In this document: piece after piece, positions 3,839 through 59,948 of the stretch | Numbering within the stretch: the first letter of the stretch is position 1 | Layout of the letters: each line of letters begins with the position of its first letter | Assembly (NCBI RefSeq): GCF_000331245.1 | Contig: NZ_ANFZ01000007.1 | Span: forward strand, 1 to 64,000 | Length of the DNA: 64,000 bases | Direction: 5' to 3' | DNA from: Blastomonas sp. AAP53 | GTDB lineage: Bacteria > Pseudomonadota > Alphaproteobacteria > Sphingomonadales > Sphingomonadaceae | Notes under the pieces: generated by a model | Databases searched by the model: none | Told to the model about the DNA's origin: nothing | Seen by the model: only the letters and a program-made list of their open reading frames with translations | Position numbers and translations under genes: made by a program

Positions 3839-4872
3839 GTATTCGTGTCCTCATCGTCGATGATTCGCCCACCATGCGTGCGTTGCTGACCGAGGCCCTG
3901 CGCCCGGAACCAGGCATTGAGGTCGTGGGCACGGCCGTCGACGCGCGCGAGGCGCGCACCAAGATCAAGGAACTCAACCCCGACGTCGTCACGCTCGACA
4001 TCGAGATGCCGGGCATGAGCGGGCTCGAGTTTCTGGAAAAGCTGATGACGCTGCGTCCCACGCCGGTGGTGATCGTGTCCGGTCTGGCCGAGAGTGGCTC
4101 GGCGATGACGGCGCGTGCGCTCGAAATCGGCGCGGTCGAATGCTATGCCAAACCCAGCGGTGCTGCCGGCAATCTGCTGGTGTCCGATCAGGGACGGCTG
4201 GCCGAAATGATCCGCAACGCAGCACAGGCCAAGGTGCAGGCGCACGACAACGCGCGCGCCGCGCCCGCTCCTCGCCAGAAAATGGGCTCCGCACGCACCA
4301 GGCTGATCGCGATCGGCGCTTCGACCGGCGGGGTGGAGGCGCTCCACGTTCTGCTCAGCCAGTTCCCCGCCGATTGCCCGCCGACCATGGTCGTCCAGCA
4401 CATCAATGGCGCATTCGCCGAAGCGGTTGCCCGTCGTCTTGATACGGTGTGTGCGCCCAAGGTGATGATCGCCGAGCCGGACCTGCCGGTAAAGGCTGGC
4501 CATATCTATATCGCGCCGGGCACCGAACGTCACATGGAAGTGCGCGGCAATGCCAGCAACGGCATCTATGTGCGCGCGCGGCCCGGCCCCAAGGTCAGCG
4601 GCCATCGCCCCAGCGTCGACATGCTGTTCCATTCGGTTGCAGAAAATCTGGGCCCCGATGCGCTGGGCATTCAGCTCACCGGCATGGGCAGCGATGGCGC
4701 GCAGGGCCTGCTGGCCATGGCAGAAACCGGTGCGATGACCATCGCGCAGGACGAATCGACATCGGTGGTGTTCGGCATGCCCGGCGCGGCAATTGCCCTG
4801 GGTGCGGCCAGAATGGTCGCGCCGATCCATCGCATCGCCCAGCATGCGTTTGCAGGAAATGCGCTATGTTGA
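3835..4872 (+). CDS. cheB: Chemotaxis response regulator methylesterase CheB
   Basis: This is a 345-residue protein. The N-terminal receiver domain has acidic residues D10/D11 and the phospho-acceptor D55 in LDIEMPGMSG. A linker at about 130-150 leads to the methylesterase domain with an intact catalytic triad: Ser163 in GASTGG, His189 in VVQHI and Asp287 in TGMGSDGA. It removes methyl groups from, and deamidates, receptor glutamates opposite CheR. It overlaps cheR by 4 bp and cheD at its end. A paralogue that has lost two triad residues lies at 6319-7365. Confidence 0.97.
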   Translation: MSIRVLIVDDSPTMRALLTEALRPEPGIEVVGTAVDAREARTKIKELNPDVVTLDIEMPGMSGLEFLEKLMTLRPTPVVIVSGLAESGSAMTARALEIGAVECYAKPSGAAGNLLVSDQGRLAEMIRNAAQAKVQAHDNARAAPAPRQKMGSARTRLIAIGASTGGVEALHVLLSQFPADCPPTMVVQHINGAFAEAVARRLDTVCAPKVMIAEPDLPVKAGHIYIAPGTERHMEVRGNASNGIYVRARPGPKVSGHRPSVDMLFHSVAENLGPDALGIQLTGMGSDGAQGLLAMAETGAMTIAQDESTSVVFGMPGAAIALGAARMVAPIHRIAQHAFAGNALC

Positions 4873-5414
4873 TGGAAACAATAGACTTTTCAAAGCACAA
4901 GCGGGTCCGCTTGATGGTCATGCAGGGCCAGGCGCGGGTCAGCGGCGATCCTCGGCTGGAGCTGACGACAGTGCTGGGAAGCTGCATCGCCTGCTGCCTG
5001 TTCGATTCATCGAACAACGTCGGTGGTATGAACCACTTCCTGCTCGCCAGCCCCGGAAACGACGCCGGGCTCGACGAACATTACGGCGTTTACCTTATGG
5101 AAGTGCTTATCAACGAAATGCTCGCATATGGTGCCGATCGCCGGATGCTGCGGGCACATCTTTACGGGGGCGCTAACATGTCGAGCGGAATGAGCTGGAT
5201 TGGCACGGCCAATGCCGAGTTTGCTCACTCGTTCCTGAAGGCGGAAGGCATTCCGCTGGTCAGCCAGTCCCTGGGGGGGCCATCGGCCAGACGTGTCGAT
5301 TTCCGCCCCTACCATGGCATGGCGCGTTGCAAGATTGTCGACAACACCATGGCACCCAAAGACCTGCCGACACCAAAAATTCGTGAAGATCACGGCGATA
5401 TTGAGCTGTTCTGA
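4866..5414 (+). CDS. cheD: Chemoreceptor glutamine deamidase CheD
   Basis: About 182 residues of the CheD family, which deamidates receptor glutamines and in some bacteria binds CheC or CheY-P. The conserved core is visible: TTVLGSCIACCLFD with the nucleophilic Cys, and GGMNHFLL with the catalytic His, followed by HLYGGANM. The start overlaps the cheB stop. The ATG at 4866 follows AGGA at a sensible distance and is preferred, but an in-frame ATG at 4872 is possible. The C-terminus is longer than the minimal family and rich in charged residues. Confidence 0.93.
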   Translation: MLMETIDFSKHKRVRLMVMQGQARVSGDPRLELTTVLGSCIACCLFDSSNNVGGMNHFLLASPGNDAGLDEHYGVYLMEVLINEMLAYGADRRMLRAHLYGGANMSSGMSWIGTANAEFAHSFLKAEGIPLVSQSLGGPSARRVDFRPYHGMARCKIVDNTMAPKDLPTPKIREDHGDIELF

Positions 5415-50183: not shown

Positions 50184-50953
50184 GGTTCGGACCTCATGAT
50201 CTGGGGTGCGTTGGCAGGTGTGGCCTGGTACGCCGCGCCTTCCGACCGGATGGCGGCGGGTGCAGGTAGCACCGGGGTTGGCGGGGGCGGTGCCTCAGCC
50301 GACACTCGATATGAAAGGACCTGAAAACCGAGCGGGTTGTTGAGCCGGTCTTCCAGTTCCATCGGCTCGCCACGAAAGGCGAACTTCATGGTTGCAACAT
50401 AGGGGCGCGCGCCTTCCCGGCGTCCATCGCGGCGGATCTGCGCGACGTTGAAGCGGACCATGGCGCTGTCCGGGCCCAGCATCGAAACACTCGATATCGT
50501 GGCTTCCAGGCCGATCGACCTCCCGCCCGATGCAATCTTCGTCGCCGGGCTGTTCTGCCCCATCTCGGAAATGTAGCTGGCACGCGCCTGGCGCGCGGAC
50601 CACAGCGCCACCTTGCGATAGGCCTGGCGCACGGTGATGGGGTCGTAGCTCTCCCGCGTGGTGACATATTGCGCCAGCAGCGCCTCCTGCAAGGCCACGT
50701 CGGCTGTCAACGTCTCCATCTGGTCCAGATTCACCCGTTCGACATGGCCGGTGGTCCGGTCGACCAGCACACCCACGGGGACCACTGTCTTGAGCGGCAT
50801 GGCAAGGGCAAGCGCCACGGCCTCCAGCAGCGCGATCGACACAGCGACCGTCGCGATCGTCCAAGCGATGCGACGCGACCGGGCACTGGCGATATCCCGT
50901 TCATCTGCCCAGCTGCGCGCAAGGTCGAAATAGGCGGGCTTGGGTTCGTTCAT
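50180..50953 (-). CDS. virB8: Type IV secretion inner-membrane protein VirB8
   Basis: 257 residues with a cytoplasmic N-terminus, one transmembrane helix at about 30-55 and a periplasmic NTF2-like domain (ALLAQYVTTRESYDPITVRQ; PYVATMKFAFRGEPMELEDR; NPLGFQVLSYRVSAE). VirB8 nucleates assembly and contacts VirB10. It overlaps virB9 and virB6 by 4 bp each. The C-terminal tail is Pro/Ala-rich. Confidence 0.92.
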   Translation of the reverse strand: MNEPKPAYFDLARSWADERDIASARSRRIAWTIATVAVSIALLEAVALALAMPLKTVVPVGVLVDRTTGHVERVNLDQMETLTADVALQEALLAQYVTTRESYDPITVRQAYRKVALWSARQARASYISEMGQNSPATKIASGGRSIGLEATISSVSMLGPDSAMVRFNVAQIRRDGRREGARPYVATMKFAFRGEPMELEDRLNNPLGFQVLSYRVSAEAPPPPTPVLPAPAAIRSEGAAYQATPANAPQIMRSEP

Positions 50954-52179
50954 GATTGCGCCTCCGGACGCTGGGAGAGAAGCCGACCTCGATCCGAGGC
51001 GGTGCGGCGGGCGCCATCGACGATCTGCGAACCGCGCCTGATGGTGCGGACGCCAACCGCCGAGGCGGCCTGGAAGACCAGCGCCGGGGCGGTCGTAGTC
51101 GGGACAGACAGGCTAGAGGCTCGCTCTCGGGCTTCGACCGCGCGCACGATTCCCGTGGTCCGCGATTGTGCCGCCGGCATGACAGTCGGCGCGTGCTGGT
51201 GCGACTGGCTATGCGTGGAGGATATGCTGGCCTGAGCAGTGACACCGGCGCCGGATTGGGTTTCTGCGATGCCCTGCTGTCCGGTCCTGGCCAATGGCAA
51301 CGGCACGGTAAGGCCTCCCGCCAGCCGGTGCATGGCATATAGCAGGCCCAGAATGACCAAAGTGAAGGACCAGATGATGGCGTTCAGCCCGGCAATTTCT
51401 GTCTCGCCAGCGCGCAATGCGGCGCGCACGGGGCCTTCCAGCATCTGCAGCTCGATCGATATCGCAATCGGGATCGCCAGTCCGGCCATTGCGGTCCCTA
51501 TCACCGCCCGCAGCCATCCGATGAACAAGCCAGCCGAGGCAGGAAAGAGCGACGCGGCAAAGGCGAACGGTCCCAGCGCCAGAAGCAGCGCCAGCGCCAG
51601 CCGCGCTGCCATCCACGATCCTGCGCCCGACACAACCATCACGCCGGCAGCGGCTCGCCGCTCCGTCATTGCCAGGCTTTCGGGCACCGTTGCATTTTCG
51701 GCAACGTTCGTGCCGCCAGGCTGCGCGCCATTGGGATCGGCGGCAGCTGTTGGCGAGGCTACGGCCTTTTCTGGTGGCGGCGCGATTGTGTCGTACGCGT
51801 TCTGCAGACGGGCAGGCAGATTGCCTGCATCGATTCCCGCTCCGGGGAAAAGCTCGCCCGCGATTTCCGCAGGGCCATCCATCGCGACCCGATAGATCAG
51901 CCGGTCATAGGCCTGCCAGCTGGTCGCCAATGCGATGACGACACCGATATGCAGCAGAAGAACGACGATATCGTCCGGCACCACCTGCCCGGCCATCAGC
52001 CGATAGCCCAGCCGCGCGATCGCCAGTGTGAGCAGACCGGTCAGCAGGATGTTGAACAGCGTGCTGCCCGACAGTCCCTGCCAGCCGCCCGCGCCAAGCA
52101 ACCCTGCCTGGCAGTCGGTCACCCCGATCAGGCTCTGGACCCAGGCATCAGGGTTTATCGTGCCGCACGTCTCGCTCAT
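50950..52179 (-). CDS. virB6: Type IV secretion polytopic membrane protein VirB6/TrbL
   Basis: 409 residues from the ATG at 52179, overlapping the virB4 stop by 4 bp (ATGA). It has five or more transmembrane helices: about 30-55 and 65-90, then a periplasmic loop and a hydrophobic C-terminal half with ALALLLALGPFAFAASLFPA, GTAMAGLAIPIAISIELQML and IIWSFTLVILGLLYAMHRLA. A long hydrophilic C-terminal tail follows. VirB6 forms part of the inner-membrane channel. Confidence 0.88.
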   Translation of the reverse strand: MSETCGTINPDAWVQSLIGVTDCQAGLLGAGGWQGLSGSTLFNILLTGLLTLAIARLGYRLMAGQVVPDDIVVLLLHIGVVIALATSWQAYDRLIYRVAMDGPAEIAGELFPGAGIDAGNLPARLQNAYDTIAPPPEKAVASPTAAADPNGAQPGGTNVAENATVPESLAMTERRAAAGVMVVSGAGSWMAARLALALLLALGPFAFAASLFPASAGLFIGWLRAVIGTAMAGLAIPIAISIELQMLEGPVRAALRAGETEIAGLNAIIWSFTLVILGLLYAMHRLAGGLTVPLPLARTGQQGIAETQSGAGVTAQASISSTHSQSHQHAPTVMPAAQSRTTGIVRAVEARERASSLSVPTTTAPALVFQAASAVGVRTIRRGSQIVDGARRTASDRGRLLSQRPEAQS

Positions 52180-54533
52180 GCCACAGCCTTCAGCAGGCGT
52201 GGCATCCACACCAGCGGTTCATCGCCCACTTCGCTGCGGATTTCATCAAGTCGGCGCACGGTTGTTTCGCGGCCCGACAGGATTGTGAGCAGATCAGGGT
52301 CCTGCGACAGATCAAGCTGGGCAACGACACTGTCGCGGCCGTGCTTGATAAGGAAAGCGCGGGAGTTGTCTGGCAGAACCCGGATGATGTCCAGTTCGTG
52401 CGCGGTGAGCCCAAAGCCTTCACAATAATGTTCGGCCTTGGCGCGCGGATTGGGCATGAATATCTGGGTCGCGGCCTGGTCCACGATGGCCGATGCGATG
52501 CGGCTTTCCAGCGCGTCTTCTGCGCTCTGCGTAGCGAACCCGACAATCCCGTTGCGCTTGCGGATCGTCTTTTCCCAGTCACGGATGCGGGCCACGAAGA
52601 CATCATCATCAAGTGCCTTCCAACCTTCATCAACCACGATGATGGCCGGTGTGCCGTCCAGCCGCTCCTCGATGCGGTGGAACAGATACATCATCACCGG
52701 GGTGCGCGTGCGCGGATCATCGAGCAGCCGCGTCATGTCAAAGCCGATGACCCGCTGATCGATATCAAGGGAATCACAGGCATTGTCGAACAGCCAGGCA
52801 TGCTCGCCGCCGCCGACCCAGGGTGCAAGCCGTGCCGCCAGGTCCCCCGCATGTGGACGGGCCCCGCCGCGCAGCAGCTGCACGAAATGGCGCAGCCGCC
52901 GCAGATGGGCCGGTGCTGCCATGTTGATGCCAACCGCGCTTTCGACCAGCGCCAGGTCTTCCGGAGACAGTTCACTGCCTGCCAGCCGCCCGATCCATTC
53001 AATCAGGAAGCGTCTGTTCTCGCTGGTGTCAGGCAGCAGCAACGGGTTGAGCCCCGAAGGCAGGCCTGGCCGAAGCACGTCATAAACGCCCCCCATGGCG
53101 CGGAGGAACAGTTCAGCGCCCCGGTCCTTGTCGAAGAAAACCACGCGAGGACGTATGCGTTGCGCCTGGGCGATCAGGAAGTTCAGCACCACGGTCTTGC
53201 CCGATCCTGAGGGGCCGATGATGGTGAAGTTCCCCAGATCGCCTTGGTGGAAATTGAAGTGATAGGGACCAGCAGCGGTTGTCTCGAGCAGCGTAATCGG
53301 CACGCCCCAGTGGTTGCCCTGGGACTGGCCGACGGCAAAGCTGTGCCAGCTTGCAAGGCTGGCAAAGTTGCGTGTGGAGACCAGCGCCTTGCGCGCGATG
53401 AAATCCTCATTACCCGGAAACTGCGCCCAGAAGGCCGGTTCAAGCCCGATGTCCTCGCGCACGGCGATCATCGACAAATCGGTGAGCGCCGCCTGAACTT
53501 CGGCAATGCCCGCATCAACAAGCGCGGGCGTATCGCCGTGAACTGCAATCGTCAGATGATGCTCGCCAAATCCTGCGCGCCCCGACGCTACGGAATCGCG
53601 CGCTTCGGTCAGCTCGTCGCGCAGCCCCATGGCCTCATCGTCGGCAGCCTTCATGCGCCGCAATGTCAGGTTGAGCCGGGCCAGGGCAGCCGCGCGATCA
53701 ACAAAGGCAAAGCTCTGCGTCACTGTCATCTCCACAGGCAGGCGCAAAAGCCCGTCGAGCATGCCAGGCGAGGTCATGCCCGGATAATCCTTGATGGAGA
53801 CGATGCCGGAAAACCGGCGTGGGGCATGACCCGTCGGTGCAAGCTCCAGGGCCTGGGCACCGAAGCTGACCCGGCGACCCGGTATGTGTTCTCCTGCATC
53901 GCCGAAGGGCAGCAGCACCTGCTGCGGATGGCCGTTGTACAGAGAGGAGAGATATTCGAGCGGCTCTGACAGCACGCCAGACGGCGATTCGCGTGTGCCC
54001 AACAGCGTTGGACGATAGGCACTGAGCGCCGCCAGAACCGCATCGCGCGCCGCATCAAGGGCATGGATTTCTGCAATCCGGCTGGCGGCACGTTCCGACT
54101 GACGCGACACCATCCGGGCCAGCGCGCTGCCAAGACCACGCGCGCCACTTTCGGGTCGGCGGATGATGGCAAGATAAAGCTCGTTTGCGTAAAGGGCCCG
54201 CTTCTGTCGCCGTTCGCGCCAGATGGCATCGAGGCTGGACGAGAAATGGTCCGGAAAATCGCCCGGAATATCGGAGTCGACCCGACGCCGGATGATGTGA
54301 TGATACAATGAAAAGCGCGACGAGCCGATCGCCTGCAGCAGGGCATCGCGCAGCTCCAGACGGTAGTTTATCTCATCACTGTCAGCGGTTTCGAACAGAA
54401 GTCCGTCAATGCGGATAACCTGCATCAGCCGCCCATCGCGCAGCATGATGGTGTGATCGTCCAGCTGCAATGCATAGGGCAGCATGCTCCCCGCAGACTG
54501 CTCGCGCTCCATGGCAAGTCGCCCCTGTTTCAT
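52176..54533 (-). CDS. virB4: Type IV secretion ATPase VirB4
   Basis: 785 residues from the ATG at 54533, which overlaps the virB3 stop by 4 bp. The N-terminal CagE/TrbE/VirB4 domain is followed by the Walker A motif GPSGSGKT near residue 440 and the Walker B in IIVVDEGWKALDDD near residue 632, then GIVGFATQSAEDALES, typical of the family. It is the main energising ATPase for pilus biogenesis and secretion. Length is normal for VirB4. Confidence 0.95.
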   Translation of the reverse strand: MKQGRLAMEREQSAGSMLPYALQLDDHTIMLRDGRLMQVIRIDGLLFETADSDEINYRLELRDALLQAIGSSRFSLYHHIIRRRVDSDIPGDFPDHFSSSLDAIWRERRQKRALYANELYLAIIRRPESGARGLGSALARMVSRQSERAASRIAEIHALDAARDAVLAALSAYRPTLLGTRESPSGVLSEPLEYLSSLYNGHPQQVLLPFGDAGEHIPGRRVSFGAQALELAPTGHAPRRFSGIVSIKDYPGMTSPGMLDGLLRLPVEMTVTQSFAFVDRAAALARLNLTLRRMKAADDEAMGLRDELTEARDSVASGRAGFGEHHLTIAVHGDTPALVDAGIAEVQAALTDLSMIAVREDIGLEPAFWAQFPGNEDFIARKALVSTRNFASLASWHSFAVGQSQGNHWGVPITLLETTAAGPYHFNFHQGDLGNFTIIGPSGSGKTVVLNFLIAQAQRIRPRVVFFDKDRGAELFLRAMGGVYDVLRPGLPSGLNPLLLPDTSENRRFLIEWIGRLAGSELSPEDLALVESAVGINMAAPAHLRRLRHFVQLLRGGARPHAGDLAARLAPWVGGGEHAWLFDNACDSLDIDQRVIGFDMTRLLDDPRTRTPVMMYLFHRIEERLDGTPAIIVVDEGWKALDDDVFVARIRDWEKTIRKRNGIVGFATQSAEDALESRIASAIVDQAATQIFMPNPRAKAEHYCEGFGLTAHELDIIRVLPDNSRAFLIKHGRDSVVAQLDLSQDPDLLTILSGRETTVRRLDEIRSEVGDEPLVWMPRLLKAVA

Positions 54534-54814
54534 GGGCGGTACGAATTGCATTGCCAGTAGCGGCGGTTCTTGACGCGAGGACATTTGCGCGCGCGGACCA
54601 GCCACAGGTCGACCAGCCTGGGTTCACGCAGACAACCCAGCCAGCACAGCGCATGGCCCAGCAGGCCTGCGACGATTACCCAGGGGGTGCGAAAAATCAG
54701 GAATAGCTCGAGAACGACGATGACATTGCCGATCACAAAGCCATAGGGAACACCCGCCAGGGTCACCGGGCGCGTCATGGCTACGAAGAGGGGGTCGCTG
54801 CGCAGCGGGTCCAT
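54530..54814 (-). CDS. virB3: Type IV secretion protein VirB3
   Basis: 94 residues from the ATG at 54814. Short membrane protein with PLRSDPLFVAMTRPVTLAGV, the family N-terminal signature, and two hydrophobic helices (GFVIGNVIVVLELFLIF; WVIVAGLLGHALCWLG). It works with VirB4 in pilus assembly. It lies between virB2 (13-bp gap) and virB4 (4-bp overlap). Confidence 0.92.
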   Translation of the reverse strand: MDPLRSDPLFVAMTRPVTLAGVPYGFVIGNVIVVLELFLIFRTPWVIVAGLLGHALCWLGCLREPRLVDLWLVRARKCPRVKNRRYWQCNSYRP

Positions 54815-54827
54815 GACGGGCCGCCCC

Positions 54828-55151
54828 TCAATATCCAGACTGCGCCGCAGTCTGGATCCCAGCGACGATACTCGCCGCGCCAAACAGGATAAAGCAGCCC
54901 ACGATGACCGCTGCACCGTGACGCCAGTTCATGCGCCCGGTCAGCATCATCAAGCCGACAAAGGCAACCGCAATGACCGCGATGGTGGTCGCTACCGTGC
55001 CCAGCAGCGTTCCCTGCAGCCAACTGACAGCGCCAACGATTGCACCGGAGCCCGCAGGATCGCCTGCCATCTGGGCGAAGGCGGAACCAGGGGCCAGGCT
55101 GACAGCAGAAAGCGCCAAAGCGGACCCTTTGCGCCAAACATTGCTCAACAT
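54828..55151 (-). CDS. virB2: Type IV secretion major pilin VirB2
   Basis: 107 residues from the ATG at 55151, with GAGGGGG 6 bp upstream. A signal peptide (cleavage near AFAQM, about residue 26) is followed by two hydrophobic helices (LLGTVATTIAVIAVAFVGLM; AAVIVGCFILFGAASIVAG) separated by a short charged loop (GRMNWRHG), the TrbC/VirB2 pilin layout. It is the first gene of the virB operon. Confidence 0.9.
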   Translation of the reverse strand: MLSNVWRKGSALALSAVSLAPGSAFAQMAGDPAGSGAIVGAVSWLQGTLLGTVATTIAVIAVAFVGLMMLTGRMNWRHGAAVIVGCFILFGAASIVAGIQTAAQSGY

Positions 55152-55287
55152 CGTCAGCCCCCTCACCACCAGAATTCAGTCATCGCTCTAAAGCGCCATC
55201 AGACCTAGTTCAGCAGTTTTAAAAACAGGTTAAGCATGTTCCAGTCACACTGGCCTGACATGTTGGCGCTTGTGCAAGCCATGCTAA

Positions 55288-55333
55288 AGCAACAGACCGT
55301 GCCACCATTGTCATGGTGCACGGTCTGCTTGCT
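55288..55333 (-). terminator. Long imperfect hairpin downstream of the copper oxidase gene
   Basis: Arms around CAGACCGTG and CACGGTCTG, extended by ACCAT/ATGGT and AGCAA/TTGCT-type pairing, form a roughly 20-bp stem with one bulge and a four-base loop. It lies 75 bp past the oxidase stop and before virB2, so it would separate the two transcripts. A smaller GCTTG-TG-CAAGC hairpin follows at 55268-55279. There is only a TTT after the stem. Confidence 0.5.
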
Positions 55334-55407
55334 CGTAACCGGCCTGTCAGCCAGCCGGAGCAGTATACTGCCAGGGCTTGCCAAGTCACGCCATGGATCA
55401 CACAGGA

Positions 55408-58400
55408 TCAGCGACGGAACATGATGCCTGCAGGGTTGCTGAAGATAAGCGTATTGGCGTTCGGCGTGGCCAATTCGACCGCCGTGCCGTCCAACCTGGT
55501 CCAGTTGGCGCGAGTATCGTTCGACGATTTGCGCCAGATGCTGCCATCGGTGCTGACCACCGTGACGGTTCCGTCACTTGATGCGGTCAGCTCAGTGGTG
55601 TTGTCACCAAAGCGGACGGGTGCCTGCCGCAGATCCGAACGCCACACACCGTTATCCGTCCCGATCATGAAGACCGAATTGCGATTGATCATGGCAACCT
55701 TCTTGGCACCGGCTCTGGGAACCTGTGTCCAGCTTTCGTTGTTGTCATCGGCCCGTTTGACCCAGACCGATCCATTGTTCGAGTTCACAACTGCGACACC
55801 TCCGTCGGCGCTTGCAGCAATGGATTGGCTATCCCGGCCAACCCGAACCCAGCGGCTGCTGTCCCAACGATAGACCATACGGTCCGTGCCAATCGCGTAA
55901 TAGCGCCCTGCCCCGATCACGGCCACATCGATAAAGCTGCCAGGCAGACGCTGCCATCCCCCATTGCGAACATTGACCCAGAACTCATTCTGCCTGTTGA
56001 CCGTTGCAACCGTGCCATCAGCACCGGCGGCGATCGTCAGCGTGCTGTGCCCGATCTCGGTAGCAACATTACCAGGCAGATCGGGGCTTGCCGGCGGAGA
56101 CGGCGGAGGCGGCGGTGGGGGCGGCGGAGGCGGCGGCGGCGGTGGAGGCGGCGGTGGCGGCGGTGGCGGCGGCGGCGTCACGACGGGCGGCGGCGGAGGT
56201 GCAACTGCCTGGTCGACCGGAGCACTGCCCGCCCGAAAGGTCGAACCTGCCCGGAAAGCGGCAGAGCCATCTGCCCTGTCCATCCAGACCTCGAAGTTGC
56301 GGTGACGGATGAAGAATCCAGGCCAATCCTGCGATTCCAGCGAAACATCCGAGGCATTGGCGCTGCTGTTCTGCGGAACGCGTGCACAGAATGTCGATCC
56401 GTTGCGAGAGACCGCGCTGTCCTGCGCCCTGATAATCCGGATGCGGAAGTTTTCGTGCTGCAGATAATGTCCAGGATAATTCGTTGATTCAAATGAGAAA
56501 CAGGCAGGATCGCCGCGGCCACGACGAACCACGAAGGAGGCGTCTGCGCGAGACACCGCGTCACTGTTCGTGTCGATCCGAGAGATGAACCCGTTAAAGC
56601 CAGCGTGACGGATCAGATGGCTGGGCCAGTCCGATGCCTCCAGGCTGATTGTGGAATCGACCACAAGCTGGCGCGCATCGCCGCCTTGCGCCGGAGGTGG
56701 AGCAGACGGCTGCCCGGAGGGCCCGGAGGGGGCCGGAGGTGCTGCCGCCGCGATGGCGATGATGACGCCGCGAGAGGGAACACCTGCAGCATTCACAACC
56801 GACAGCTGATAATAGCCCGGAGGCGCAAGATTTGCAGATCCCGGCATGGTAACCGAAAGCCCGCTGGCCGTCCGCTGAAAGGCGGCGCGCAGTCGCCGCT
56901 GATTGGAATCAAAGCTGTGCGTCACCGAACCCAGTGCAATCAGCGAAACCTCTGTGACCTCGTCGCCGGCTGCGGTTTGGACCTCAATATTCTGGCCATA
57001 GTTCGACGAAACGGTAGACAGGCTGATGATCTGTGGACGGCTTGCCAGGACCGACCGGCCACCTTCCTGCCGGAAGAGATATGGGGGATAGAAAATCTCA
57101 GCGTTCAGGTTCTGCAGCGGGCCCGGCGCGCCGCCACCGGCGATCAGCACCGTACCATTCAGGGTCAAAAGCGCTGACGAATGGTAGCCTCGATAAATCC
57201 CTGTTGCTGCGGCCGCCGTCCAGCGGGCCGTTGCAGGGTTCCAGATTTCAGATGGCAGAACGGCATTTCCGCCCGCCTCGTCCGCATAGCGCGATCCCCC
57301 CGTGACCAGAACATGCCCATTGGGCAGAACGGTGGCGTTTGGCCATTGCCTGGGATTGATCATTGGCGCGGTCTCGTTGACGGCCAGTTGGCCAGACCCG
57401 AGGCCATTGATGTCAAACACCGTGGCTGCGCCACTCGAAGGCGTAGGAAAGCCATTGAAATAGCCGTTGCCACCAACCTGCAGGATCCTGCCGGTGTCAA
57501 ACATGACTGCGGTCGATGTTGGTCCGATATTCGGGCGTGTGACGCTGTCGGCACGCGTCTTGAAATCACGCAGCGTCCGGATCGACCCGGAGCCCTCCAG
57601 CCGCATCTCCCAGATCTTCTCGCTCGAAATGCCGAACAACGTGCCAGCAGGCGAAACCCATTGGCGCGGATACCACCAGCGCGTGCTGCGAGGCCCAAAG
57701 GCATCGGTGCTGAATGCTCCAACAAGGCTGCGCCAACCCTGGCCCGGAGTGTAGACTTCTGGTGTCGACGAGATGTCCGGAGCGGACGCTTCTGGACGGT
57801 TAGGGTCCCCGTTTGCGTAAGGAACTCCGCCACCTGTGATGATGGCACGGCCATCGGGCAATTTGGTCATCGTGCCGTACCAGCGCGGCGCATTGAGGTC
57901 AAAGTCACGGCTCGCACTGGAACTGCGCCAGTCGAGCAACATGCTTTCGCGACTGGAAAACCCGGTGGCACCGCTGGCCCCGCCCGACGTCAACAGACGA
58001 CCATCGTTCAACAGGGTGGCAGAAGCACAAAAGCTGTCGACATTCTGGGCGTTTGGCAGGACCCGCAAGGCGGCTGATCCGGTGCCACGGCTTGGCTCCC
58101 AGAAGGCCAGGGTGCGGCCATCCTGGACGCCCGCAACACCTGGAGGCGCCCCGAATGTCAGAACGCGACCATCGGGGAGCAGCGAGGCATGGATGGCAAT
58201 CATGGGCCAGTCGAACACGCGAGACCACATCCCCGCCTGCGCCGCATTTGCCGGAATGGCCAGGTTGGACAGCAATGGATCAGGCGTGGTGTTGTCGATG
58301 ACCACCGGATGCACGGCGTCCTGCGCCATTGCCGGCATGGCGCTGACGCCAGCCATGAGAAGGGCGGCGACAGGCAAGGCCCTTGCAGACGCCAACAGGC

Positions 58401-58428
58401 GAACGGCGGCAGCACACTTGAGTGACAT
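55408..58428 (-). CDS. Secreted copper-radical (galactose/glyoxal) oxidase fused to AbfB and tectonin-like domains
   Basis: 1006 residues from the ATG at 58428 (TGGAG upstream). A Sec signal peptide is cut near AMAQD (about 36). The kelch propeller and DUF1929-type C-terminal domain carry every copper-radical site residue: C134 (FCASATLLNDG), Y184 (RWYGTM), Y415-H416 (RGYHSSAL) and H504 (SVTHSFDSNQR). C134 and Y184 would form the Cys-Tyr cofactor. Residues about 585-735 are an AbfB/CBM42-like sugar-binding domain with repeated SLESxDWPGxFIRHxxF patterns. A run of 25 prolines (752-776) then links to a tectonin-like propeller with GTDNGVWR-type repeats (about 795-1006). It would oxidise sugar or aldehyde groups to make H2O2 at a bound surface. 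Substrate unknown. Confidence 0.87.
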   Translation of the reverse strand: MSLKCAAAVRLLASARALPVAALLMAGVSAMPAMAQDAVHPVVIDNTTPDPLLSNLAIPANAAQAGMWSRVFDWPMIAIHASLLPDGRVLTFGAPPGVAGVQDGRTLAFWEPSRGTGSAALRVLPNAQNVDSFCASATLLNDGRLLTSGGASGATGFSSRESMLLDWRSSSASRDFDLNAPRWYGTMTKLPDGRAIITGGGVPYANGDPNRPEASAPDISSTPEVYTPGQGWRSLVGAFSTDAFGPRSTRWWYPRQWVSPAGTLFGISSEKIWEMRLEGSGSIRTLRDFKTRADSVTRPNIGPTSTAVMFDTGRILQVGGNGYFNGFPTPSSGAATVFDINGLGSGQLAVNETAPMINPRQWPNATVLPNGHVLVTGGSRYADEAGGNAVLPSEIWNPATARWTAAAATGIYRGYHSSALLTLNGTVLIAGGGAPGPLQNLNAEIFYPPYLFRQEGGRSVLASRPQIISLSTVSSNYGQNIEVQTAAGDEVTEVSLIALGSVTHSFDSNQRRLRAAFQRTASGLSVTMPGSANLAPPGYYQLSVVNAAGVPSRGVIIAIAAAAPPAPSGPSGQPSAPPPAQGGDARQLVVDSTISLEASDWPSHLIRHAGFNGFISRIDTNSDAVSRADASFVVRRGRGDPACFSFESTNYPGHYLQHENFRIRIIRAQDSAVSRNGSTFCARVPQNSSANASDVSLESQDWPGFFIRHRNFEVWMDRADGSAAFRAGSTFRAGSAPVDQAVAPPPPPVVTPPPPPPPPPPPPPPPPPPPPPPPPPSPPASPDLPGNVATEIGHSTLTIAAGADGTVATVNRQNEFWVNVRNGGWQRLPGSFIDVAVIGAGRYYAIGTDRMVYRWDSSRWVRVGRDSQSIAASADGGVAVVNSNNGSVWVKRADDNNESWTQVPRAGAKKVAMINRNSVFMIGTDNGVWRSDLRQAPVRFGDNTTELTASSDGTVTVVSTDGSIWRKSSNDTRANWTRLDGTAVELATPNANTLIFSNPAGIMFRR
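56101..56175. repeat. GGN triplet repeat encoding 25 consecutive prolines
   Basis: 75 bp made only of GGC, GGT, GGA and GGG triplets on the + strand, read as Pro codons on the minus strand. It separates the AbfB-like and tectonin-like domains of the copper oxidase. Being a triplet tract, length changes keep the frame, so linker length could vary between isolates. Confidence 0.85.
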
Positions 58429-58474: not shown

Positions 58475-59065
58475 TTATCGACGCGCCAGTTCGACCAGAG
58501 CGTCGATGTCAGCACGAATTTGACGAGCAGCCAGGGGCACGCCGGAATAGCGTTGGATCATCCGGTGCCGGGTATCGAAGAGCCGTACTTCGGTCGTATG
58601 CAAGGCCGAGCTGTCGTCCTGCGGGCGCAGCGCGACAAACTTGCGTACAACGCGCATGATGCGATCCGGGCGACCGGTCGCGAACGTCCACAGCTTGGGG
58701 TCTGCGCGATGCGCGCGAGCAAATGCCTGCAGTCTCGCTGGCTTGTCATTGCCCGGATCGACGCTGATCGACAGAACCGTGACACGCGAACGCAACGAGG
58801 GTGGCAAGGAGTTGTGAAAGCGCGCGAGTTCGGCGGTCTGCGTCGGGCAACTTGTGCCACAGCCGGTGAAGATGAAGTTCACCAGCACGAAACGACCGGC
58901 AAAGCGACCGACATTGATCGGGCGACCATTTTGATCAATCAGGCCTTCGACCATCTCGTAGAGCGGATCGGCGACCGGGGAAGCCGGCTTGGCCAAACTT
59001 GCGGTCATCGCCGGCAGAATAATTGCCAGCACCGCAACAATCGATTTAACAATCCTGTTAACCAT
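58475..59065 (-). CDS. SCO1/SenC family copper chaperone
   Basis: 196 residues from the ATG at 59065, with AGGGGG upstream. An N-terminal hydrophobic signal/anchor (VKSIVAVLAIILPAMTASLA) is followed by a thioredoxin-like fold. Copper ligands are C69-x3-C73 in FTGCGTSCPTQ and H156 in SALHTTEV, as in SCO proteins that deliver copper to cytochrome oxidase CuA or other periplasmic copper enzymes. It lies 46 bp upstream of the copper-radical oxidase gene on the same strand and is probably cotranscribed, so it may metallate that enzyme. Confidence 0.9.
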   Translation of the reverse strand: MVNRIVKSIVAVLAIILPAMTASLAKPASPVADPLYEMVEGLIDQNGRPINVGRFAGRFVLVNFIFTGCGTSCPTQTAELARFHNSLPPSLRSRVTVLSISVDPGNDKPARLQAFARAHRADPKLWTFATGRPDRIMRVVRKFVALRPQDDSSALHTTEVRLFDTRHRMIQRYSGVPLAARQIRADIDALVELARR

Positions 59066-59373: not shown

Positions 59374-59622
59374 ATGGCAGCGGCGATTGCGGGTCCGACC
59401 GCGCATGGATTTCGCGCGACTGGCAGTTCGCTGCTCAACGAAGAAGGCCGCTGGCCACCGGACATCATCGAGCATGCCCTCGCCCACAAGGACCGCGATG
59501 CCGTCCGCGCGATCTACAACCGGACGACCTACTGGAAGGCGCGCGCGGAGATGATCCAAGCCTGGAGCGATCGTATGGACGCACTGAGGGACGGCGAGTT
59601 CATCCTGCGGCTTGCGGCCTGA
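59374..59622 (+). pseudogene. Truncated tyrosine recombinase (P4-type integrase), C-terminal fragment
   Basis: 82 codons encode only the catalytic C-terminus of a phage-type integrase. TAHGFRATGSSLLNE holds the conserved Arg, DIIEHALAHKDRDAVRAIYN holds the second His-type motif, and YNRTTYWKARAEMIQAWSD holds the nucleophilic Tyr region. A full protein is about 400 residues, so the N-terminal arm-binding and core domains are missing. A GGAGG happens to lie upstream of the first ATG. The 3' end faces tRNA-Leu 240 bp away. It is a remnant of a mobile element that integrated at that tRNA. Confidence 0.8.
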
Positions 59623-59701
59623 CCGGGGTTGTCGCGACAGATGATTCGCGACCGATGCGGCCCTTCGGAGGGCTGATCAACACCTCCCACGAACGACCAA
59701 G

Positions 59702-59736
59702 GTGGGGCCAAAATTCGGCCCCAAAAATGGCCCCAC
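59702..59736. repeat. Hairpin downstream of the integrase fragment
   Basis: GTGGGGCCA (59702-59710) and TGGCCCCAC (59728-59736) are perfect reverse complements. The loop contains a further GGCCCC. The stem is followed by TTTG on the + strand. It could be the integrase transcript terminator or part of an old attachment region. Related GGGGCC/GGCCCC words recur up to 59765. Confidence 0.55.
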
Positions 59737-59861
59737 TTTGAGCCCCACTATGGCACCGGATAGCCCCATATTGCGTCGGACTTGTCCGAACTCGACTTTG
59801 TCAAAAACAACGGTTTTCCGGGGGCTTGGCCCATTCGCGAGGCTCTCAGCGAATGGGTGAA

Positions 59862-59948
59862 TGGTGCCCAGAAGAGGACTCGAACCTCCACGCCCTTGCG
59901 AGCGCCAGCACCTGAAGCTGGTGCGTCTACCAATTCCGCCATCTGGGC
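59862..59948 (-). tRNA. tRNA-Leu (CAG)
   Basis: 87 nt including an encoded CCA (59864-59862). The acceptor stem GCCCAGA pairs with TCTGGGC. The D-arm has TGGCGGAATTGGTAGAC, the anticodon stem CCAGC/GCTGG encloses the loop TTCAGGT with anticodon CAG, a long class II variable arm follows, and the T-arm contains GGTTCGAGTCC. The long variable arm and the D-arm sequence identify leucine. Its 3' end faces the integrase remnant, the usual attachment-site position. Confidence 0.95.

What the first reader, a model, noticed from the sequence alone, without database searches (positions are those of the whole stretch)
55408..58428. Copper-radical oxidase fused to AbfB, 25-proline and tectonin domains
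All five active-site residues of galactose/glyoxal oxidases (C134, Y184, Y415, H416, H504) are present in a Sec-exported bacterial protein followed by an arabinofuranose-type binding module, a rigid polyproline spacer and a lectin-like propeller. The layout suggests an H2O2-producing oxidase anchored to glycans, for example to feed lignin or polysaccharide oxidation or to attack competitors. I know of no described protein with this exact architecture.
Basis: partly seen in the sequence, partly recalled or inferred. Interest (0 to 1): 0.75.

Follow-up and report, generated by a model that had tools for sequence, protein, structure and literature searches.

The report
Copper oxidase paired with secretion machine
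A bacterium, probably a sphingomonad, carries a sugar-binding copper oxidase whose gene is kept together with its copper loader and with a secretion machine that may carry the finished enzyme out of the cell; this would be a new kind of cargo for such a machine.

Summary
Window 55408-58428, MINUS strand, encodes 1006 aa: Sec-like signal, AA5 copper-radical-oxidase domain with all five active-site residues, E-set, AbfB/CBM42 trefoil, exactly 25 prolines and a tectonin propeller. Among the seven oxidase loci I read, this exact layout occurs only here; the relatives carry other C-terminal modules.

A SCO1/SenC copper chaperone lies 46 bp upstream and a VirB2-3-4-6-8-9-10-11 type IV secretion system (T4SS) downstream, same strand. 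Of the seven loci, 7 have a SCO gene beside the oxidase and 6 have this T4SS downstream; those six VirB4s form one clade. No VirD4 lies beside it and no gene for VirB5 fits in the cluster, as in the Ptl exporter, which moves a Sec-exported periplasmic protein outward. Best explanation: Sec export, copper loading by SCO, then outer-membrane export or display by the T4SS, and H2O2 production on a glycan surface. The enzyme's identity is well supported; transport is inferred from conserved linkage. Related T4SSs often adjoin RHS-repeat proteins. New variant of known parts.

The parts
55408..58428 (-). Copper radical oxidase gene, 1006 aa (P0001)
   Evidence: Pfam; PDB phmmer (9g8h, E 1.7e-41)
58321..58428 (-). 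Sec-type signal peptide, residues 1-36 (by eye: hydrophobic stretch, AMA-Q)
   Evidence: read from the translation; no signal-peptide program was run
57040..58233 (-). Kelch-type catalytic propeller, residues 66-463, with C134, Y184, Y415, H416
56752..57039 (-). GO-like E-set domain, residues 464-559, with H504
   Evidence: Pfam PF09118
56233..56646 (-). AbfB / CBM42 beta-trefoil, residues 595-732
   Evidence: Pfam PF05270; fold TM 0.87
56101..56175 (-). 25-proline run, residues 752-776
55480..56040 (-). Tectonin propeller, residues 797-983 (model covers 785-1006)
   Evidence: Pfam PF19193; model; Foldseek
58475..59065 (-). SCO1/SenC copper chaperone, CxxxCP and His present, 46 bp before the oxidase start
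   Evidence: Pfam; alignment
55270..55345 (-). Strong hairpin between oxidase and virB2 (-43.8 kcal/mol); possible terminator or attenuator
   Evidence: not in the terminator list
54828..55169 (-). VirB2 pilin (an ATG start lies at 55151)
   Evidence: Pfam PF04956
54530..54820 (-). VirB3 (start uncertain)
   Evidence: Pfam PF05101 (scanned as 54530-54916)
52176..54605 (-). VirB4 ATPase
   Evidence: NCBIfam TIGR00929 above cut-off
50950..52209 (-). VirB6
   Evidence: Pfam PF04610
50180..50953 (-). VirB8
   Evidence: Pfam PF04335
49380..50183 (-). VirB9
   Evidence: Pfam PF03524
48199..49383 (-). VirB10
   Evidence: Pfam PF03743
47183..48202 (-). VirB11 ATPase
   Evidence: NCBIfam TIGR02788 above cut-off
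59374..59622 (+). Integrase-like fragment, 82 aa
   Evidence: Pfam PF00589 E 2.7e-4, below its cut-off
59862..59948 (-). tRNA-Leu (CAG) at the edge of the cluster

Best explanation
The gene encodes a secreted copper radical oxidase of the AA5 kind whose C-terminus carries exchangeable glycan-binding modules. It is kept together with a SCO copper chaperone and a T4SS without a VirD4 of its own. Most likely working order: (1) the Sec pathway takes the protein to the periplasm; (2) SCO loads copper, so that the Cys134-Tyr184 cofactor can form; (3) the folded, roughly 103-kDa enzyme crosses the outer membrane, or is shown at its surface, through the neighbouring VirB machine, in the way the Ptl system moves its Sec-exported substrate; (4) the AbfB and tectonin modules, spaced by a stiff proline rod, hold it on glycans, where it oxidises alcohol or aldehyde groups and releases H2O2. 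Shown here: domains, active-site residues, gene order, conserved linkage, no VirD4 beside the machine. Inferred: steps 1 to 4 as events, the substrate and the target surface.
For: Active site complete in 7 of 7. SCO adjacent in 5 of 5 first relatives and in the sixth, L089; CxxxCP and His intact in 6 of 6 aligned. In Streptomyces lividans a sco deletion leaves the related oxidase GlxA immature and copper rescues it (PMC4736821, passages). T4SS downstream in 6 of 7 oxidase loci counting the window (in L089 with a SCO gene between). In 295 Sphingomonas genomes 6 have the oxidase, and in 5 of those 6 a VirB4 match starts 1.5-2.3 kb after the oxidase-domain match on the same strand, against a VirB4 anywhere in 72 of the other 289 (Fisher p 0.005 for mere presence, genomes not independent). 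The six linked VirB4s are one clade, SH-aLRT 99, although L089 and the window share only 52% in the oxidase domain and 65% in VirB4. No VirD4 beside it: the own genome's one PF02534 match lies in another T4SS cluster with its own VirB4 and VirB11; 15 of 43 genomes with the wider T4SS family have no PF02534 match at all. Ptl shows the same traits: substrate genes directly upstream, no VirD4, VirB5 or VirB1, Sec-exported substrate (PMC8402538, PMC12857230, passages). Sister T4SSs adjoin other large proteins: RHS-repeat runs in 13 of 24 group II loci and 0 of 16 others.
Against: No secretion, expression or activity data. L002 has SCO and oxidase, and its genome (a MAG; taken to be G516 by contig number and position) gave no VirB4 match, so the oxidase may occur without the T4SS. 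A strong hairpin separates oxidase and virB2, so they may be separate transcripts. The SCO-oxidase pair occurs without this T4SS in other proteobacteria. Oxidase and VirB4 identities correlate at 0.90 over 15 pairs but only 0.24 without L089. No VirB7 gene fits between virB6 and virB8, whereas Ptl has one. 28 of 43 genomes have some PF02534 protein that could serve this T4SS in trans, including 5 of the 6 T4SS-linked oxidase genomes. Other exporters of folded proteins, such as a type II system elsewhere in the genome, were not searched for. Many RHS proteins lie away from the T4SS. Six linked loci are a small sample.
Confidence: 0.5

Rival explanations
1. The oxidase is the tip or adhesin of the T4SS pilus rather than released cargo: it replaces the missing VirB5 and binds target glycans through AbfB and tectonin, with oxidation marking or fixing the contact.
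For: No VirB5 gene fits in the tightly packed cluster; C-terminal modules vary between relatives while the catalytic domain is conserved. A substrate standing in for VirB5 has been proposed for Ptl (PMC8402538, PMC12857230, passages).
Against: A 103-kDa enzyme is unlike known minor pilins (recalled); nothing shows pili here; no search with a VirB5 model was run.
Confidence: 0.15
2. The oxidase acts on the cell's own envelope or exopolysaccharide, like GlxA with CslA in Streptomyces, or leaves by another route such as a type II system; the T4SS only shares the locus and perhaps its regulation.
For: GlxA precedent (PMC4736821, passages; PMC11022532, listing only); SCO-oxidase pairs exist without this T4SS; hairpin between oxidase and virB2.
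Against: I noticed no glycan synthase beside the oxidase loci (by eye, not searched with models); does not explain why the oxidase stays with one VirB4 clade.
Confidence: 0.2
3. Hitch-hiking: SCO, oxidase and T4SS are merely neighbours on a genomic island, seen beside a tRNA-Leu and an integrase-like fragment in the window.
For: tRNA-Leu and integrase-like fragment at the edge; flanking genes differ between loci (by eye); the oxidase's GC3-GC2 contrast is low in the window, 0.10 against 0.18-0.43 for most neighbours.
Against: Same order and strand in 6 loci, with oxidase-domain identities down to 46% between some pairs; no tRNA in the five relatives' loci with T4SS; no copy of the tRNA 3' end elsewhere in the window; overall GC like the surroundings. 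Of 66 VirB4 loci compared, only the one clade has the oxidase.
Confidence: 0.15

Closest known systems
AA5 copper radical oxidases (fungal galactose oxidase; the Pseudarthrobacter siccitolerans galactose oxidase 9g43; Streptomyces GlxA)
   Same: Kelch and E-set sequence matches and the five active-site residues
   Different: About 27% identity to the best solved relatives; not a GlxA equivalog (124 bits against a cut-off of 800); a different set of binding modules; linked to a T4SS
SCO-GlxA copper pathway of Streptomyces (PMC4736821)
   Same: SCO chaperone with a copper radical oxidase; that paper already notes sco next to the glxA cluster in Frankia and co-occurrence in Burkholderia (passage)
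   Different: Here SCO and oxidase sit at the head of a T4SS cluster; I noticed no DtpA or CslA beside them (by eye)
Bordetella Ptl system (VirD4-less T4SS)
   Same: VirB2-3-4-6-8-9-10-11 present here (the assignment of Ptl genes to these names is recalled); no VirD4 beside it, no VirB5; Sec-type putative substrate encoded directly upstream
   Different: The putative substrate is a metalloenzyme of another family; no VirB7 found; export untested
CBM42/AbfB and tectonin lectins (Laccaria bicolor tectonin 2, carp fishelectin)
   Same: Pfam and fold matches
   Different: Ligands unknown; no solved relative of the tectonin part by sequence (best E 0.56)

Membership tests
AA5 copper radical oxidase | Cys, Tyr, Tyr-His, His active-site set | tested here: met
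   (7 of 7)
AA5 copper radical oxidase | Kelch propeller plus E-set | tested here: met
   Pfam and phmmer; Foldseek ranks galactose oxidases first (E 4e-16) but with TM only 0.13-0.29 because the model is poor
AA5 copper radical oxidase | Copper, Tyr-Cys crosslink, oxidase activity | not testable with these tools
   needs protein
GlxA equivalog (NF052501) | Score above curated cut-off 800 | tested here: not met
   124.3 bits
AbfB / CBM42 | Pfam score over cut-off and trefoil fold | tested here: met
AbfB / CBM42 | Arabinofuranose binding | not testable with these tools
   binding residues not assigned here
Tectonin | Pfam score over cut-off and propeller fold | tested here: met
SCO1/SenC | Pfam match, CxxxCP and conserved His | tested here: met
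   (6 of 6)
Ptl-like VirD4-less T4SS | VirB2-3-4-6-8-9-10-11 present | tested here: met
Ptl-like VirD4-less T4SS | No VirD4 belonging to the system | tested here: met
   none on the cluster's contig; those looked at sit beside another VirB4 or, by eye, a relaxase; use in trans not excluded; G243 C27 and C62 not looked at
Ptl-like VirD4-less T4SS | No relaxase (not a conjugation system) | tested here: inconclusive
   none noticed by eye near the cluster; no relaxase model was searched
Ptl-like VirD4-less T4SS | VirB7 lipoprotein | tested here: inconclusive
   virB6 and virB8 overlap by 4 bases, so none between them; not searched elsewhere
Ptl-like VirD4-less T4SS | Exports a Sec-exported periplasmic protein | not testable with these tools
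   needs mutants

The most novel reading that the evidence does not exclude
Sphingomonads hold a widespread family of T4SSs without VirD4 that export large Sec-exported surface proteins. One clade is devoted to a copper-loaded radical oxidase matured by its own chaperone, with interchangeable glycan-binding ends; sister clades handle RHS-repeat proteins. It would be, to my knowledge, the first T4SS that carries a metal-radical enzyme, and a tractable environmental model of two-step type IV secretion.
Probability: 0.35. Interest if true: 0.85.

Novelty: new variant of a known kind. Interest (0 to 1): 0.6.

Why it matters
How T4SSs without VirD4 pick up folded periplasmic proteins is called an open question in a recent review (PMC12857230, passages), whose examples in the passages I saw are pathogens. 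An environmental sphingomonad system with an enzyme cargo whose activity can be read by an H2O2 assay would make it directly testable. It would also give bacterial copper radical oxidases, which to my knowledge have few known roles outside Streptomyces, a delivery route and a place of action.

Tried and rejected
Lignin or polysaccharide degradation as the main role: I noticed no peroxidase or glycoside-hydrolase partner shared among the oxidase loci (by eye). Conjugative-element cargo: no coupling protein beside the T4SS; the genome's conjugation-type set is a separate locus (L040). A tRNA-flanked island: no repeat of the tRNA end within the window. Plasmid origin: 28 plasmid records match, none at 60% identity or more, none covering 80% of the query. 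Viral contigs: no relative. Full-length AlphaFold model: mean pLDDT 50.6, the oxidase domain unusable for substrate reasoning. Some aromatic residues near the active site were compared between relatives but not read for substrate.

Gene calls in fetched loci came from my own length and GC3 script, not a trained gene finder; relaxases, the L040 genes and most flanking genes were named by eye. The YD-repeat motif was recalled; Pfam found RHS in 13 of 17 chosen large proteins. Group II is L043-L066 (24 loci, inside one starred branch with the oxidase clade), the others L067-L082 (16). L045, L048, L049, L054, L058, L064 and L109 are shorter than 20 kb because of contig ends. The 20 further Sphingomonas loci (L094-L113) were my choice from 77 genomes. 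The trees are quick searches without bootstrap. VirB5, VirB7, relaxase and type II secretion genes were not searched with models.

Literature: searches are listings only. One search (two of galactose oxidase, AbfB, tectonin) listed 3 papers with unrelated titles; others (copper radical oxidase + type IV secretion; galactose oxidase + Sphingomonas + AA5) listed none; others (15 of 66 shown) showed no title about this sphingomonad T4SS. Subscription papers are mostly not held.
Full report
Observation. The frame 55408-58428 is open on the minus strand and broken by stops on the plus strand. It encodes 1006 residues and has one match in its genome, itself. C134, Y184, Y415, H416 and H504 are as stated and align with the active sites of solved galactose oxidases; best PDB match 9g8h, E 1.7e-41. 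Pfam places Glyoxal_oxid_N, GO-like E-set, AbfB and Tectonin above their cut-offs. The proline run is exactly 25 residues with mixed codons. The AbfB part matches CBM42 structures with TM 0.87-0.88. The tectonin part, modelled alone at pLDDT 83, matches tectonin 2 of Laccaria bicolor and carp fishelectin first, TM 0.75-0.82. The full-length model was poor in the oxidase domain (mean pLDDT 50.6), so Foldseek's galactose-oxidase matches there have low TM. The protein after residue 36 is about 103 kDa with three cysteines: Cys134 and two in the AbfB part.

Neighbours. Forty-six bases upstream, same strand, is a SCO1/SenC protein with the CxxxCP motif and a conserved histidine in 6 of 6 aligned members. 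Downstream, after a gap of about 240-260 bases that holds a strong hairpin, lie VirB2, 3, 4, 6, 8, 9, 10 and 11 on the same strand. Beyond SCO are an integrase-like fragment on the + strand (weak) and tRNA-Leu.

Relatives. A scan of genome contigs gave five loci, all titled Sphingomonas, 59-62% identical in the best segment. SCO is next to the oxidase in 5 of 5 and the VirB set directly downstream in 4 of 5, with VirB4 76-77% identical. Among 98 genomes spread over relatives of the window's genome only the window itself has the oxidase at E <= 1e-20. In 295 genomes of the relatives' genus the oxidase occurs in 6: three that the tool maps to L003, L005 and L006, two that I match to L002 and L004 by contig number and position, and a new one, G316, at 52% identity. 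VirB4 occurs in 77 of 295 at E <= 1e-200. In 5 of the 6 oxidase genomes VirB4 starts 1.5-2.3 kb after the oxidase-domain match on the same strand; the sixth, a MAG, has none. In G316 a SCO-like gene (CxxxC seen by eye, no Pfam match), the oxidase, a Pfam-confirmed SCO and VirB2 onward follow one another. None of 40 VirB4 loci from the window's family and none of 20 more from Sphingomonas has the oxidase by tblastn. A VirB4 tree of 66 loci puts all six oxidase-linked copies in one clade, SH-aLRT 99 (quick search). Oxidase and VirB4 identities correlate at 0.90 over 15 pairs, but at 0.24 without the distant L089, so co-evolution among the five close loci is not shown.

Modules. The catalytic part is conserved while the C-terminus changes: oxidase + AbfB repeats (L002-L005), oxidase + 20 prolines + tectonin (L006), oxidase + four Cys-containing repeats without a Pfam match (L089), and oxidase + AbfB + 25 prolines + tectonin (window).

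The T4SS. In the own genome the only VirD4-family match is on another contig, in a cluster whose VirB4 and VirB11 are 30-31% identical to the window's and which, by eye, holds a relaxase. In G243 (contig 24) and G245 a VirD4 match lies within 5 kb of a second, different VirB4; in G244 and G316 it sits beside relaxase-like genes on another contig (by eye); the MAG matched to L004 has none. Of 43 genomes with this T4SS family, 15 have no VirD4-family match at all, several of them in one or two contigs, such as G022, G054, G143, G016 and G165; the other 28 have one or more. This fits the class of systems lacking VirD4, in which the Ptl substrate is exported by Sec first and its genes lie directly upstream of the machine (PMC8402538 and PMC12857230, passages only).

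What else this machine family adjoins. RHS-repeat runs lie inside the fetched locus in 13 of 24 group II loci and in 0 of 16 others (Fisher p 3e-4); Pfam found RHS in 13 of 17 large proteins scanned. Genome-wide, RHS is in 22 of 24 group II genomes and 3 of 15 others (p 8e-6), so part of the local signal could be a lineage effect. Reading the cut listing by hand, RHS repeats lie within 20 kb of this VirB4 in 13 of the 24, and further RHS genes lie elsewhere. No RHS run was found in the window or L002-L006 nor in the called proteins of L089, although G244 and G245 have RHS on other contigs. In 6 of 20 further Sphingomonas loci proteins rich in the motif are near.

Copper loading. In Streptomyces lividans, GlxA stays immature without Sco and copper rescues it; the same paper notes sco next to such a cluster in Frankia and co-occurrence in Burkholderia (PMC4736821, passages). 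I saw SCO within 8 kb of the oxidase in 5 of 6 plasmid relatives, by annotation or tblastn, and the VirB set in 0 of 6. So the SCO-oxidase pair is known and general; the T4SS linkage is the new part, seen here only in sphingomonads.

Reading. A two-membrane cell needs a second step to move a Sec-exported protein outward, and an enzyme that gets its copper and cofactor in the periplasm would leave folded. A T4SS of the Ptl kind is the machine encoded beside it, in six of seven loci. That is the reason for the best explanation at 0.5. Rivals are pilus-tip display, action on the own envelope or exit by another exporter (not searched), and hitch-hiking. Nothing here shows transport, activity or target.

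Noticed in passing
L043-L066 and L094-L113 (VirB4 loci): VirB4 relatives occur at E <= 1e-100 in 104 of 199 genomes of the window's family (identities down to 38% included). The closer group often adjoins RHS-repeat proteins, and 15 of 43 genomes checked have no VirD4-family match.
   Followed up: partly
L089:9347-11965: The distant oxidase of G316 ends in four Cys-containing repeats with no Pfam match, perhaps an undescribed binding module.
   Followed up: no
L046:15372-17554, L098:14953-15921, L106 about 4346-5368 in VirB4 orientation: Similar 320-340-aa secreted-looking proteins near the T4SS that share an RTW(I/V)SG motif; kind not identified.
   Followed up: no
window 20000-46200: Aromatic-catabolism-like genes (by eye: Rieske oxygenases, LigB-like, flavin hydroxylase, TonB receptor) downstream of virB11.
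   Followed up: no
window 59374-59948: Integrase-like fragment beside tRNA-Leu, a possible old integration site; no matching repeat in the window.
   Followed up: partly
L041:7027-11277: Another oxidase-like protein (1416 aa, E-set above cut-off) in family genome G103, without SCO or VirB matches in the 20 kb read.
   Followed up: no
L116 (Burkholderia ambifaria plasmid): Oxidase + SCO pair with an annotated RHS protein about 6 kb away, without the VirB set within 8 kb.
   Followed up: no
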